Positions 48,190 to 52,637 are shown, counted from the first letter of the stretch. The stretch is 64,000 nt of DNA from Fimbriimonas sp. (GCA_031292555.1 JARLGV010000075.1:1-64000); one strand, 5' to 3'. Notes: a model not told the origin generated them from the sequence alone. A program made the numbers and translations.

Positions 48190-48963
48190 ATGGTGATTCC
48201 GATTCTTGACGAACTCGTCGCCCTCTCACTGAAACTCGGCGATCCATTAGCCGACCTCGCGATTCTCGCCGAGGGCAATGCGAGCGCCAAGGCAGATGAC
48301 GAACACTTCTACGTCAAGGCAAGCGGCTACTCCATGCGGAACATAGGCGCAGAGGGTTTCTCGAAGGTGCTTTTCGCCCCCATACTGGAAGCGCTGAACG
48401 GTCCGGACCTTACCGACGTCGCAGTCCGCGAACTGCTTTCGAGCAGTCGAGCCGACCCTGACTTCTATCCTCGCCCCTCCGTCGAGACGTTCATGCACGC
48501 CTACCTTCTACAACTTCCAGGCGTGAACTTCATCGGGCACACACACCCGACTCCGCTTATCAGCCTCCTTAGCGTTGAGGGGTGCAAGGAGATTGCCGCC
48601 ATGCGTCTATTCCCAGACGAAATCGTATGCTGCGGCCCGGCAACCGCCTTCGTTCCTTACACCGATCCTGGGCTGCCTCTGGCGCGCGCCATTAAGGCGT
48701 CTGTCGAGGAGTTCGCCCTCAAGTATGAGATGGCGCCCAAGACGATCTGGCTTCAGAATCACGGACTCATCGCAGTCGGGAAATCGGCTTCCGACGTCGA
48801 AAGCGCGACTTTCATGGCGATCAAGGCCGCCAGGGCCTGGTTGGGCGCCCTTACGAGCGGTCGCAAACTCAATCCGTTGACGGAGGAAAACGTCAACCGC
48901 ATCCATACGCGTCCCGACGAGCACTACCGGCAAGAACTGCTCTGGGCGATGCAGCGAGCTTAG
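48190..48963 (+). CDS. Class II aldolase/adducin-family protein
   Basis: 257 residues. Zinc-binding aldolase fold: ILAEGNASAKADDEHFYVKASGYSM near the N-terminus, FIGHTHPTPLISLL with the His pair, and WLQNHGLIAVGKS with the third His. Family members cleave fuculose- or rhamnulose-1-phosphate or act as epimerases. With L-fucose isomerase in the same window it could process fuculose-1-phosphate, though this is inference. Its 3' end overlaps the secretin stop by 4 nt. Confidence 0.85.
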   Translation: MVIPILDELVALSLKLGDPLADLAILAEGNASAKADDEHFYVKASGYSMRNIGAEGFSKVLFAPILEALNGPDLTDVAVRELLSSSRADPDFYPRPSVETFMHAYLLQLPGVNFIGHTHPTPLISLLSVEGCKEIAAMRLFPDEIVCCGPATAFVPYTDPGLPLARAIKASVEEFALKYEMAPKTIWLQNHGLIAVGKSASDVESATFMAIKAARAWLGALTSGRKLNPLTEENVNRIHTRPDEHYRQELLWAMQRA

Positions 48964-50444
48964 CCGGACGTCGCTGCGTCGTCCACGATCTTTGGAGTGA
49001 TCATTATGATCGTCTCGATCTTCTTCTTCGTATTGGTTCGCTGAGTAAAGATCTCTCCCAAGATTGGGATGTAGCCAAGGATTGGAACCCGGATGACCTG
49101 GTTGTCCTGCGTCTGATTGATCAGGCCGCCGATGATGATCGTCTCACCTGATTTGACGCGCACGTCCGTCGTCGCGCGTCGAACCTGCGAAGACGGGTTC
49201 CCGTTCTGAAGCACGACTGCATCGCTCACTTCAGGCTCCAGGTGCATGGTGATCATGCCGTCCGATCCGATAAACCCGGTGAACTTGAGGATGATTCCGG
49301 TGTGAATCAACTGGATCTGGCTTGTCGGGAACGTAGTGCTTCCGCTCAGGAGCGAGAAATAGGTGTCGGTGCCCACGTTGACGTTCGACTCTCGTCCCTC
49401 GATGGTCATTAGCCTCGGGTTCGCCCTCAGGATCGCTTTGTGATTAGTGATCATCGCCTGGATCTTGGCCACATCGGAGAATCCAGCCTTCTGGTAACTG
49501 AGGCTCAGGTCCGTGCCAAACGAGAATTTGTTCGTCGCAAAGTTGAATCCGGCGTCAAGATCGTTTTCATGCGAAACTTCCGTGATCAGGGCTTCCACCA
49601 CGATCTGTCGGCCAGGCTTGTCGGCTTGGGTGATATCCGCGAGGATCTTGTGGAGCAGTTGAGGAGGCGCGCAAACACCGATCGCGTTTGTTGACGGGTC
49701 GACCGAAAGATAGGGCTTGTACGAAGCGCTCAAGAGCGCCTGAATCGAAGCCGCCTTTTGGTTGTGAACGCTGTAGATCTGGGTTTCAGCGAACTCCCTA
49801 AACAGCGACGAGTCTGGAGTGGCCTTGCTAACGATATAAAAGCCGGGTGCCTTCAACTTCCAATACGCGCCCGCCATCATCGAGATCGTGTCCAGTACGT
49901 AGTCAATCGTGGCGTTCTTGAATTCGACCGAGATGTTCTGCTCTTTGATCGTTTCGTCAGGAGCGATGATCACGCCGGCCAGGCTTGCGACATCGCTGAT
50001 CACGCTCTTTATGTCTTGCCCGTCGTACTGATTGGAGATCAAACCGTTAGAGCCGGTCGTCTTCGACGTCGGCTTGGCCGCACCGGTATCGGAGGAGGAT
50101 GCCTTCTTGACCGCCGCATCGGAACCCGTCTTCTGTCCGATATCGACCTTTCCGGGGACTCCAACCAACTTAACCTGCGGCGAATCGATTTGGATGGTCC
50201 CCTGGTCTCCGCCCGCGAACTTTGGCTTGGGAGGAGGCATCGTGAACGTGCCGTTATCAACTCGGGCGGCTGTCGCTACAACCGTTTGTGCCACCGGCAG
50301 TTCGATATGGGCTCGTCTGAACCGAGAGATGGCTGAGGCGATCATCGTACCGGAGAACGTGCGATGACCAATCGCACTCATGGCGGTGTTGGTAACCGCA
50401 AATGCCGTTGCCGCAAGAATCACGCTGTATGCAAACCGCTTCAA
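48960..50444 (-). CDS. Secretin (PilQ/GspD-like outer membrane channel)
   Basis: 494 residues with a signal peptide (MKRFAYSVILAATAFAVTNTAMSA). A Lys/Ser/Thr/Pro-rich linker precedes an STN-like domain (NQYDGQDIKSVISDVASLAGVIIAPDETI) and an N1-type repeat (YLSVDPSTNAIGVCAPPQLLHKILADITQADKPGRQIVVEALITEV). The C-terminal secretin domain includes NPRLMTIEGRESNVNVG, the VPILGYIPILGEIFTQRTNTKKKIETIIMITPKIV signature and the strand IHTGIILKFTGFIG. It should form a multimeric outer-membrane pore. It is last in a three-gene minus-strand operon and no type II or IV pilus ATPase is adjacent. Confidence 0.9.
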   Translation of the reverse strand: MKRFAYSVILAATAFAVTNTAMSAIGHRTFSGTMIASAISRFRRAHIELPVAQTVVATAARVDNGTFTMPPPKPKFAGGDQGTIQIDSPQVKLVGVPGKVDIGQKTGSDAAVKKASSSDTGAAKPTSKTTGSNGLISNQYDGQDIKSVISDVASLAGVIIAPDETIKEQNISVEFKNATIDYVLDTISMMAGAYWKLKAPGFYIVSKATPDSSLFREFAETQIYSVHNQKAASIQALLSASYKPYLSVDPSTNAIGVCAPPQLLHKILADITQADKPGRQIVVEALITEVSHENDLDAGFNFATNKFSFGTDLSLSYQKAGFSDVAKIQAMITNHKAILRANPRLMTIEGRESNVNVGTDTYFSLLSGSTTFPTSQIQLIHTGIILKFTGFIGSDGMITMHLEPEVSDAVVLQNGNPSSQVRRATTDVRVKSGETIIIGGLINQTQDNQVIRVPILGYIPILGEIFTQRTNTKKKIETIIMITPKIVDDAATSG

Positions 50445-52057
50445 AGTTTTCCTCCCGGCTTCTTTCCTGAAGACGAACCTCTGGTCTTCTTAGGGGCAGG
50501 AACCGTGAAAGGAATCAGCTTTTTCTCGAAAAGGTCTTCTGCGTACTGGTAACTGACCTCTACCGCGTAGGCGCCCGGCTTGAGAGTAAGCGGCAACATG
50601 ACTCGGTTGTGGAGGGTGGCGCCAGGGAGAATTCCCCCATCACCCAAGTCGGGAACTTCGAGCGAAGCGACCGGTGTCAAGCCGTTTTCAAGCACATGGG
50701 CCGACGGCAGGGGTTTTAGCGCGATGTTGCCCTCATTCGTGACCTCGTAGTCGACGCTGATCGGGTATCCGTTGACCGTCCCAATCTCCTTTTGGGCGAT
50801 GCTCAGCTTCGTCAAGAACTTGGCCTTCGGCGATTCCGGCACGGTCACGCTGCCGTAAACATCCTCCGACATCGAGTCGCCGGCCGTCGTGATCGCCGAG
50901 ATTGCGAACCAGTTGTCGCCCGTCGCCTGGTCGTCCAACGACACCTTCACGTGAATCGTCTTTGTTCGCTTGGGCTCCAATGTAATGGAGTCCGGTGAAA
51001 GCTCGATGCTGAGCGGAGGAGCCGCTCCATCGTCCAATACCTGAAGAGCTCCGTTAGGCTGTTGGGCGAGCTTATGGGCGGTCAACGAAATCGTTAGGTC
51101 CTTGTCGCTTATATTCGTGATTCGGATCGGGATCGTTCGGCTCGCACCTGCCGGCACGTTTGCGTGAACCCGCTCGGGGTCCATACCGAATGGAGGCAGG
51201 GAAAGCAAGCTCTTCTCCGTGAGCGGAGTGCTTACATGGTCCTTCACGACAAAGTCGGCGGTGATTGGACGGAACGTACGGGTCCCCGACTGGCATATCG
51301 CCTGAACGCGATATTGTCCATCTCCAAGGACTGGGACTGAAAACCGCAATTTGCGGTGCGTTTCCGGATATAGGTTCCGATCGGAATCGCTTCGAACCGC
51401 GACTGTTCGCCCCGTGGACGTATTCCTTACTTGGACAGTCGCTCCAACGACAAGGAACGCGTCACTCTCATTGAGGAATGGCACGTCGACGTAATTGTTC
51501 TTGGCGCTTGCAATCAACTCGGGCGACCCAAGCTTCAAGTCGGCCCTTGGTTGAGTGCCGACGTAGAGAATGACTGGGATCTGATACTGCGTCACGATGA
51601 CGCTGTTGTCTCCCTCAATGTTAGGAACGATCGTGGCAAGGCAGTAGTACGTTCCCGAGTCGATTCCTCGTGGAACGGTTAGTTTGAGAGGAAACACGCG
51701 CTGGGCGCGCGGTGAAACCGTACCGTTGACCGACGTCTCCGCAAACCAAGTGGAGCAATCGAACTTGGTCGGAGTACCTAGCACCGGGCCGTAGGTCCAC
51801 TCCTGATAGGTGACGGGGTGGATTTCAAGCTTGATCTTGAGTGAAGTTGGTTCGAGGTTCGTGACGCCGAACGGCAACGTCAGAGTCGCTCCCGGCCGTG
51901 CCGGCTGCCGGAACATTACCGGGACCACGGCGATACCGCGCAGACCAGTCGATTCGGTTTGAGCCATTGATCCGGCGACAATGGACAGCAACAGAAGAAT
52001 CCCGGCCGCGAATCGATGGATGGACGTGGACTCTGCTGCGCTAATTGATCGTGACAC
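50441..52057 (-). CDS. Exported protein with repeated Ig-like domains
   Basis: 538 residues with a signal peptide (RFAAGILLLLSIVAGSMAQ). Beta-rich throughout with at least three Ig/PapD-like modules: LRGIAVVPVMFRQPARPGATLTLPFGVTNLEP, then VPRGIDSGTYYCLATIVP, then VHANVPAGASRTIPIRITNISDKDLTISLTAHKL and FLTKLSIAQKEIG; C-terminal SSSGKKPGGKL tail. Such proteins act as chaperones or scaffolds of surface structures in other systems. It overlaps the secretin gene by 4 nt and the upstream subunit gene by 17 nt. Confidence 0.7.
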   Translation of the reverse strand: MSRSISAAESTSIHRFAAGILLLLSIVAGSMAQTESTGLRGIAVVPVMFRQPARPGATLTLPFGVTNLEPTSLKIKLEIHPVTYQEWTYGPVLGTPTKFDCSTWFAETSVNGTVSPRAQRVFPLKLTVPRGIDSGTYYCLATIVPNIEGDNSVIVTQYQIPVILYVGTQPRADLKLGSPELIASAKNNYVDVPFLNESDAFLVVGATVQVRNTSTGRTVAVRSDSDRNLYPETHRKLRFSVPVLGDGQYRVQAICQSGTRTFRPITADFVVKDHVSTPLTEKSLLSLPPFGMDPERVHANVPAGASRTIPIRITNISDKDLTISLTAHKLAQQPNGALQVLDDGAAPPLSIELSPDSITLEPKRTKTIHVKVSLDDQATGDNWFAISAITTAGDSMSEDVYGSVTVPESPKAKFLTKLSIAQKEIGTVNGYPISVDYEVTNEGNIALKPLPSAHVLENGLTPVASLEVPDLGDGGILPGATLHNRVMLPLTLKPGAYAVEVSYQYAEDLFEKKLIPFTVPAPKKTRGSSSGKKPGGKL

Positions 52058-52637
52058 CGATGTTTCCCGTCCCTACAAGTCTAGTGGAGCCTTGCGCCTT
52101 TTCGGTTATGTTCAGTGTTCGCGTCAAGACCAAGACCAGATTGCCGTCCTTTGGAACTTGAGTGATTCCAACCGTCAGAGTCTGGCCATTGAAACCATCG
52201 TCGGCGCCGCTAACCGGCCCACTGATGAGACCACCGATGTGCGTAGGCGTCCCCTGGTAAAGCGCCATGGAGTACATGATGCTTCCCACACTGGATTGAG
52301 ACGTTTGACCCGAGGTCAAAGGCTTAAAAGAATTCGCGGTAAACGTTAGCGAGCGATTCGTCATTACCGAGATCGCGTTCGCTTGGGTATCGCTTGACGC
52401 GGTACCGATGCCGTCGACATTGAAGATGCCACCAAAGTTGCCGCTGACCTCGACATGCGTCGGAACGATGTCTGCGGCTGGCCTCTGAGCGACCCCGGTA
52501 TCCAGGGCGTTGATATGGTTGGCACGGTACCAAGCCTGAAGTTGGGTGGGGTCATACATGAACGGCCGCACACCGGAGTGCCTCGGGGACCCGTGCGGCA
52601 TCGCCATCAGTAACGCCAGGACTGCAAATTGAGTCAT
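52041..52637 (-). CDS. Exported subunit-like protein upstream of the Ig-like/secretin genes
   Basis: 198 residues. N-terminal MTQFAVLALLMAMPHG resembles a signal peptide. The body is Thr/Ser/Gly-rich beta sequence (VEVSGNFGGIFNVDGIGTA; TLTVGITQVPKDGNLVLVLTRTLNI) ending in LVGTGNIGVTIN, similar in style to fimbrial or surface beta-sandwich subunits, but no family is recognised. First gene of the cassette, so it is a candidate substrate of the secretin. Confidence 0.6.
   Translation of the reverse strand: MTQFAVLALLMAMPHGSPRHSGVRPFMYDPTQLQAWYRANHINALDTGVAQRPAADIVPTHVEVSGNFGGIFNVDGIGTASSDTQANAISVMTNRSLTFTANSFKPLTSGQTSQSSVGSIMYSMALYQGTPTHIGGLISGPVSGADDGFNGQTLTVGITQVPKDGNLVLVLTRTLNITEKAQGSTRLVGTGNIGVTIN

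What the first reader, a model, noticed from the sequence alone, without database searches (positions are those of the whole stretch)
48960..52637. Compact secretin cassette: exported subunit, Ig-like protein and secretin without pilus ATPase
Three genes on one strand, coupled by overlaps of 17 and 4 nt, encode an exported beta-rich protein of unknown family, an exported protein with several Ig/PapD-like modules and a complete secretin. No type II/III/IV ATPase, platform protein or prepilin gene is in the unit. The order (subunit, chaperone-like protein, outer-membrane channel) parallels chaperone-usher pili, but with a secretin in place of the usher. This could be a minimal export or surface-fibre system not described so far; alternatively these are accessory genes of a type II system encoded elsewhere.
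Basis: partly seen in the sequence, partly recalled or inferred. Interest (0 to 1): 0.68.

Follow-up and report, generated by a model that had tools for sequence, protein, structure and literature searches.

The report
Subunit–chaperone–secretin export cassette
Three coupled genes in an Armatimonadota bacterium encode a pilin-like exported protein, a double chaperone-like partner and a dedicated outer-membrane secretin with no motor genes nearby; the chaperone-secretin pair recurs across the phylum and looks like an undescribed export system in which a secretin stands where a pilus 'usher' would be.

Summary
Three co-directional genes (SUB 198 aa, CHA 538 aa, SEC 494 aa) overlap by 17 and 4 nt. 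SEC is a full secretin. CHA is a tandem pair of two-domain Ig units, homologous in sequence to WxL-interacting protein (E 2e-13) and structurally close to PapD-type pilus chaperones (Z 12-14). SUB, in no Pfam or NCBIfam family, models as a beta sandwich whose matches include donor-strand pilins (FimG, PapG, CsuA/B; Z about 8, middling). The cassette is not a local accident. The genome has four copies; the trio is syntenic in three related genomes; double CHA recurs in 26 of 291 Armatimonadota genomes (13 families), with a compact secretin beside it at 30 of 31 readable loci. CHA-linked secretins form one clade, apart from the T2SS/T4P secretins sampled, and no ATPase was found near them. Single-unit CHA relatives sit beside a different large protein, not a secretin. 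Best reading: a Sec-dependent chaperone–secretin route exporting and perhaps polymerising pilin-like subunits. Not shown: strand exchange, fibres, or independence from a T2SS in trans (every cassette genome tested has T2SS/T4P platform genes).

The parts
52041..52637 (-). SUB: exported beta-rich subunit, 198 aa (first gene)
   Evidence: ORF; orthologues and paralogues; AlphaFold2 model mcd2077061f4e
52467..52565 (-). SUB N-terminal extension (residues 25-57), low-confidence in the model; most relatives carry an R-x-F-x-Y motif here; candidate donor strand (inference)
   Evidence: pLDDT under 50 for residues 1-29 and 40-57; alignment A6
52044..52457 (-). SUB beta-sandwich (residues 61-198) running to the last residue; the C-terminal Asn is invariant in 15 relatives
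50441..52057 (-). CHA: double WxLIP/PapD-like protein, 538 aa (second gene)
51242..51937 (-). CHA unit 1 (Ig domains about residues 41-167 and 172-272), with C101, W104 and C139
   Evidence: AlphaFold2; profile match to EfmWxLIP1; conservation; domain limits are read from the strand list
50495..51205 (-). CHA unit 2 (Ig domains about residues 285-407 and 414-521), homologous to unit 1
   Evidence: hhalign of the two halves, prob 97.9, E 3.5e-13; VIA Z 18.1 WxLIP, 13.6 CfaA
48960..50444 (-). SEC: compact secretin, 494 aa (third gene)
49830..50048 (-). SEC N0/STN-like domain (about residues 133-205; assigned by eye, weak profile support)
   Evidence: sub-threshold FecR_C hit at residues 160-198; N0/STN hits in relatives, STN over its cut-off in L086
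49605..49784 (-). SEC N1 (Secretin_N, residues 221-280; 25.5 bits, just under its cut-off of 28.2)
48981..49457 (-). SEC secretin barrel domain (residues 330-488)

Best explanation
The trio is a dedicated chaperone-secretin export unit. SUB, CHA and SEC enter the periplasm by Sec (inferred from their N-termini). CHA, two WxLIP/PapD-like units in one chain, binds SUB and keeps it soluble, probably by lending a beta-strand to a pilin-like incomplete beta sandwich (inferred). SEC forms the outer-membrane channel through which SUB leaves (a secretin is shown; the transport is inferred). Outside, SUB and the related subunits encoded at a second site of the genome probably join by strand exchange into a fibre or surface layer (inferred, least certain step). 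No dedicated cytoplasmic motor is encoded; by analogy with chaperone-usher pili, folding and strand exchange would drive export.
For: CHA-to-secretin adjacency at 30 of 31 readable loci, usually in operon-like spacing (-14 to +196 nt in the 19 loci measured). CHA-linked secretins form one clade (SH-aLRT 94) against the other Armatimonadota secretins sampled, except one truncated copy without CHA that falls inside it. No T2SS/T4P ATPase found beside 28 of the neighbourhoods, while the positive-control clusters were found. CHA structure: WxLIP Z 18.1, CfaA 13.6, CsuC 12.9, FimC 12.7 over both domains of a unit; sequence E 2e-13 to WxLIP. In the published WxLIP-WxL prediction a WxLIP strand completes the WxL beta sandwich (PMC10599100). 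SUB model: PapG pilin domain 8.2, FimG 8.1, CanA 8.0, CsuA/B 7.6, aligned from residue ~53-60 to its C-terminal end against the C-terminal end of the pilins. SUB family ends on an invariant Asn. Up to three tandem SUB paralogues before one CHA. Single-unit CHA relatives lie beside small exported proteins and a large protein other than a secretin.
Against: SUB's fold matches are middling (Z 8; an unrelated viral coat protein scores 8.6) and its model averages pLDDT 66. No sequence match of SUB to any pilin. The PapD anchor-type Arg (R50) is conserved only in the Fimbriimonadaceae copies, not across the phylum. SUB-like sequence is recognisable only within one family; elsewhere the upstream exported proteins are too diverged to be shown homologous. 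All 25 cassette genomes tested carry T2SS/T4P platform genes elsewhere. No experiment.
Confidence: 0.52

Rival explanations
1. T2SS/T4P accessory: SEC is a specialised secretin used in trans by a T2SS or T4P motor encoded elsewhere, with CHA and SUB as its adaptor and cargo.
For: The host has several T2SS/T4P clusters, and all 25 cassette genomes tested have T2SSF. The host also has three orphan GspD-type secretins, so secretins apart from their motor are common there.
Against: The two motor clusters examined in full already carry their own secretin (L107, L108). CHA-linked secretins form a separate clade that follows CHA, not motors. No ATPase beside 28 cassettes. One locus (G042) has a T2SSF gene about 9 kb away, the only near case noticed.
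Confidence: 0.22
2. WxL-like surface complex: SUB and CHA both leave through SEC and bind each other and the envelope or other surfaces, as WxL and WxLIP do in Gram-positives; no polymer forms.
For: CHA is homologous to WxLIP, and WxLIP is a surface protein that binds WxL (PMC10599100).
Against: No WxL domain in 291 Armatimonadota genomes. Tandem subunit paralogues fit a multi-subunit assembly.
Confidence: 0.2
3. Chance neighbours: an exported protein of unrelated function happens to precede an orphan secretin.
For: None found.
Against: Conserved overlaps, four copies in one genome, 30 of 31 loci across 13 families, one secretin clade.
Confidence: 0.02

Closest known systems
Chaperone-usher pathway (PapD/FimC/CfaA/CsuC family with FimD/PapC-type usher)
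   Same: Gene logic subunit(s) - periplasmic Ig chaperone - outer-membrane channel; CHA units superpose on PapD-type chaperones (Z 12-14); the subunit resembles donor-strand pilins; no motor in the unit.
   Different: The channel is a secretin, not an usher (no PF00577 in the genome); the chaperone is a tandem duplicate with four Ig domains; no sequence homology shown to PapD chaperones or pilins.
WxL / WxLIP cluster of Gram-positives (DUF916 + DUF3324)
   Same: CHA is a sequence homologue of WxLIP (E 2e-13; Pfam cut-off passed in one member), next to a small exported partner.
   Different: No WxL domain in the phylum; CHA is duplicated and paired with an outer-membrane secretin.
Type II secretion / type IV pilus secretins (GspD, PilQ)
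   Same: Same secretin domain.
   Different: Short N-terminal part (about one N0-like and one N1 domain before the barrel); far below the family cut-offs (145 of 351 bits for GspD, 117 of 284 for PilQ); no ATPase, platform or pseudopilins in the unit.
Filamentous-phage pIV secretin
   Same: A small secretin outside a T2SS/T4P cluster; PDB match to a virion export protein (7ofh, E 3e-12).
   Different: No phage structural genes noted in the unit; partners are Ig proteins.

Membership tests
Chaperone-usher pathway | Usher (PF00577) as the outer-membrane channel | tested here: not met
   No Usher match in the whole genome; control E. coli found
Chaperone-usher pathway | Two-domain PapD-fold periplasmic chaperone | tested here: met
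   As a fold only: CHA residues 287-521 vs CfaA Z 13.6 (4.2-4.5 A, 191-195 aligned), CsuC 12.9, FimC 12.7; no PapD-family chaperone in the sequence search
Chaperone-usher pathway | Conserved basic residues of the chaperone cleft (PapD Arg8/Lys112) | tested here: inconclusive
   An Arg at a comparable place (R50) is invariant in 8 close copies but not across the 25 aligned; the equivalence was judged by eye against PapD recalled from memory, Lys112 not seen
Chaperone-usher pathway | Subunit with incomplete Ig fold, N-terminal donor strand and C-terminal last strand | tested here: inconclusive
   Fold matches FimG/PapG/CsuA-B with Z about 8 and matching C-terminal ends, but model pLDDT 66 and equal scores for unrelated sandwiches
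Type II secretion / type IV pilus | Traffic ATPase in the unit | tested here: not met
   tblastn of the host's own ATPases finds none in 28 cassette neighbourhoods plus the window; positive controls found
Type II secretion / type IV pilus | Secretin | tested here: met
   Pfam Secretin E 8e-37, but below the GspD and PilQ cut-offs
Type II secretion / type IV pilus | Functional dependence on a motor in trans | not testable with these tools
   All 25 cassette genomes tested carry T2SSF
WxL cluster | WxLIP (DUF916-type) protein | tested here: met
   Profile A7 vs EfmWxLIP1 E 2e-13; PF06030 over its cut-off in the G253 member; the window's own CHA is below that cut-off
WxL cluster | WxL domain protein (PF13731) | tested here: not met
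   0 of 291 genomes; control Lactococcus lactis found

The most novel reading that the evidence does not exclude
A motor-free 'chaperone-secretin' pathway: a duplicated WxLIP/PapD-type chaperone hands pilin-like subunits to a dedicated secretin that has taken the usher's place, and the subunits polymerise outside by strand exchange. It would be a mode of export found neither for secretins (always motor-driven so far, from general knowledge) nor for chaperone-assembled fibres (always usher-linked in diderms so far, from general knowledge).
Probability: 0.4. Interest if true: 0.88.

Novelty: new variant of a known kind. Interest (0 to 1): 0.72.

Why it matters
Secretins are known from motor-driven machines (T2SS, T3SS, type IV pili, Tad, filamentous phage), and chaperone-assembled pili in diderms use ushers. 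A conserved unit that pairs a PapD/WxLIP-type chaperone with its own secretin clade would break both rules. It would make testable whether a secretin can export folded subunits with chaperone hand-over as the only visible energy source. It would also tie the Gram-positive WxL/WxLIP proteins to chaperones of diderm surface fibres, and give a first handle on surface structures of Armatimonadota.

Tried and rejected
Naming SUB by sequence: no Pfam, NCBIfam or PDB-sequence match. Distant upstream exported proteins (L045, L053, L086, L090-L092, L097) match no pilin family, so they are called candidates by position only. I first read CHA's R50 as a PapD-Arg8 equivalent; a wider alignment shows it is not conserved. 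The big partner of single-unit CHA relatives was tested as an usher: no PF00577 and no PDB usher, only CarboxypepD_reg and SdrD_B domains with a trace of CooC_C (E 0.06-0.09), so it is not called an usher. Presence or absence of T2SS as a test of independence failed because every genome tested has it. The cassette was looked for outside the phylum on plasmids: no CHA; the secretin hits looked at were a T2SS-like cluster, T3SS, an ATPase-bearing cluster on a Negativicutes plasmid and an unrelated Deinococcus operon. Chromosomes outside Armatimonadota were searched only once, with close CHA relatives as query, and gave only Armatimonadota. Literature searches found no chaperone-secretin system; the library is partial. 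In the VIA list of SUB no WxL chain was among the 50 rows shown; that does not exclude one.

Full report
OBSERVATION. The window holds three minus-strand genes at the reported coordinates: SUB 52637-52041 (198 aa), CHA 52057-50441 (538 aa) and SEC 50444-48960 (494 aa), overlapping by 17 and 4 nt. SEC matches the full Pfam Secretin model (E 8e-37) and, just under the cut-off, Secretin_N. CHA has only sub-threshold Ig-type hits, among them WxLIP_PGBD (E 6e-4). SUB has none. The window lies in G000, a 6.46-Mb genome whose near relatives are MAGs named Armatimonadetes or Fimbriimonadaceae.

NOT A LOCAL ACCIDENT. G000 has ten secretins over the Pfam cut-off. Four of them (C132 in the window, C81, C9, C71) belong to a compact group and each follows a CHA relative. 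C81 has three tandem SUB paralogues, then CHA, then the secretin. The window trio sits in the same place between the same neighbours in three other genomes of its genus (G019, G004, G005; L046-L048), with SUB-CHA overlaps of 17, 17 and 20 nt in these genomes. Further SUB genes sit at a second, syntenic site in exactly these four genomes; the window genome thus has the trio, three other cassettes and an extra subunit gene elsewhere.

ACROSS THE PHYLUM. A profile of distant CHA relatives, and then a 22-row profile, found CHA homologues in 44 of 291 Armatimonadota genomes at E 1e-10. They fall in two classes. By my count from the match lengths and the neighbourhoods, the double form occurs in 26 genomes of 13 families. 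Of 31 double-CHA loci with readable sequence downstream, 30 have a compact secretin next to or close behind CHA; the exception (L089) has 1.8 kb downstream, while in L095 the secretin lies 2.8 kb away behind other ORFs. Spacing was -14 to +196 nt in the 19 loci I measured and -4 nt in most Fimbriimonadaceae copies. A tree puts all CHA-linked secretins on one side of a branch (SH-aLRT 94), apart from the other secretins sampled; the only intruder is G014's truncated copy without CHA. This was a quick tree with midpoint rooting, so the grouping is good evidence and the root is not inferred. The host's own traffic ATPases used as queries find nothing in the window or 28 cassette neighbourhoods but do find the T2SS/T4P clusters L107 and L108, each with its own secretin. 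The genome has no usher.

WHAT CHA IS. Its N and C halves are homologous (hhalign prob 97.9, E 3.5e-13), so it is a tandem duplicate. The AlphaFold2 model is good (pLDDT 81). Unit 2 (287-521) aligns over both domains with WxLIP of Enterococcus faecium (Z 18.1) and then with a long series of pilus chaperones: CfaA 13.6, SfaE 13.0, CsuC 12.9, FimC 12.7. Sequence profiles reach WxLIP (E 9e-5 with close copies; 2e-13 with the phylum set), and one member passes Pfam's WxLIP_PGBD cut-off. The published WxLIP-WxL prediction has a loop of WxLIP becoming a strand that completes the WxL beta sandwich (PMC10599100), which is what PapD-type chaperones do for pilins (general knowledge). C101 and W104 are conserved in 23 and 24 of 25 CHA sequences.

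WHAT SUB IS. With five sequences the model is modest (pLDDT 66; the core 80-90, the first ~57 residues disordered). The structural neighbours include pilins and other donor-strand proteins: PapG pilin domain Z 8.2, FimG 8.1, CanA cannula 8.0, CsuA/B 7.6; a birnavirus coat protein scores 8.6. Such Z values are middling and show only a compatible fold. Two details fit a pilin better than a generic sandwich: the aligned part starts near residue 53-60 and ends at the last residue, matching the C-terminal ends of the pilins, and in 15 diverse relatives the protein ends exactly on an invariant Asn. The extension before the sandwich carries an R-x-F-x-Y motif in most relatives; that it is a donor strand is inference. 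By sequence SUB is recognisable only within its taxonomic family, including one more genus (L122, E 6e-15). Elsewhere one or more small exported proteins occupy the same position but could not be shown homologous.

A TELLING SISTER SYSTEM. The second class of CHA homologues is single (about 280 aa, homologous to unit 1, hhalign prob 99.2, E 2e-19). None of the loci read (L125-L140) has a secretin. They follow one or two small exported proteins and precede a 650-970-aa exported protein which, in the six scanned, ends in CarboxypepD_reg and SdrD_B domains. Its strand-rich middle looks barrel-like by eye, but no usher family matches. So the same chaperone-like family works with two different third partners: a large protein when single, a secretin when double. 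This is the strongest comparative hint that the secretin fills the role of the export or assembly platform.

MECHANISM. Shown: gene order, coupling, conservation, secretin identity, CHA homology and fold. Inferred: Sec export of all three proteins; CHA lending a strand to SUB; passage of SUB through SEC; polymerisation outside. The last is least certain. Independence from a T2SS in trans cannot be decided from genomes, because all 25 cassette genomes tested have T2SSF genes, and three orphan GspD-type secretins in the same genome show that secretins apart from motors are not rare here.

KNOWN OR NEW. It works like a chaperone-usher unit but is not a member (no usher). It contains a WxLIP homologue but is not a WxL cluster (no WxL domain in 291 genomes). 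It uses a secretin but carries no T2SS/T4P machinery. No description was found in the partial literature library. A Deinococcus plasmid has a different ATPase-free compact-secretin operon (with an Ig-like protein and a subtilase), so motor-free secretin operons may be a wider theme. I rate it a new variant of a known kind; if the motor-free route is proven it would be a categorically new one.

Noticed in passing
L125-L140 (e.g. L129:4377-8025, L137:6396-9761, L127:6831-11096): Sister operons: small exported protein(s), single-unit CHA (about 280 aa), and a 650-970-aa protein ending in CarboxypepD_reg/SdrD_B domains, without a secretin; possibly a divergent chaperone-usher-like system of Armatimonadota.
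   Followed up: partly
L116:3634-8397 (Deinococcus wulumuqiensis plasmid pDrdI): A 396-aa secretin in an operon with an Ig-like (Big_7) protein and an S8 subtilase, no ATPase, no CHA homologue: another motor-free compact-secretin operon.
   Followed up: partly
L112:5390-7903, L113:1382-3853, L114:6168-8627: Three orphan GspD-type secretins (about 820-840 aa) in the host genome, closest to the T2SS secretin of L107 but with no ATPase gene nearby.
   Followed up: no
L103:7734-8399; L104:7530-9060; L105:6791-8438; L106:6773-7456: Extra SUB-family genes, single or in tandem, at one syntenic site (between a peptidase-like gene and ABC transporter genes) in exactly the four genomes that carry the window trio.
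   Followed up: yes
L052:8466-9326 and G014:C8:63468-64415: A truncated compact secretin (in-frame stops in the wider match) without CHA in G014: apparent decay of a cassette.
   Followed up: no
window 48960-50444 (-), SEC residues about 30-130: Before its N0-like domain SEC has a conserved R/H-rich segment (RHTFSGTMIASAIS) and a variable Pro/Ala/Lys-rich linker that grows to over 100 residues in orthologues; function unknown.
   Followed up: no
Pfam WxLIP_PGBD control list: Thermotoga maritima, a diderm that also has a secretin, has a WxLIP_PGBD match over the cut-off; whether the two genes are neighbours was not checked.
   Followed up: no
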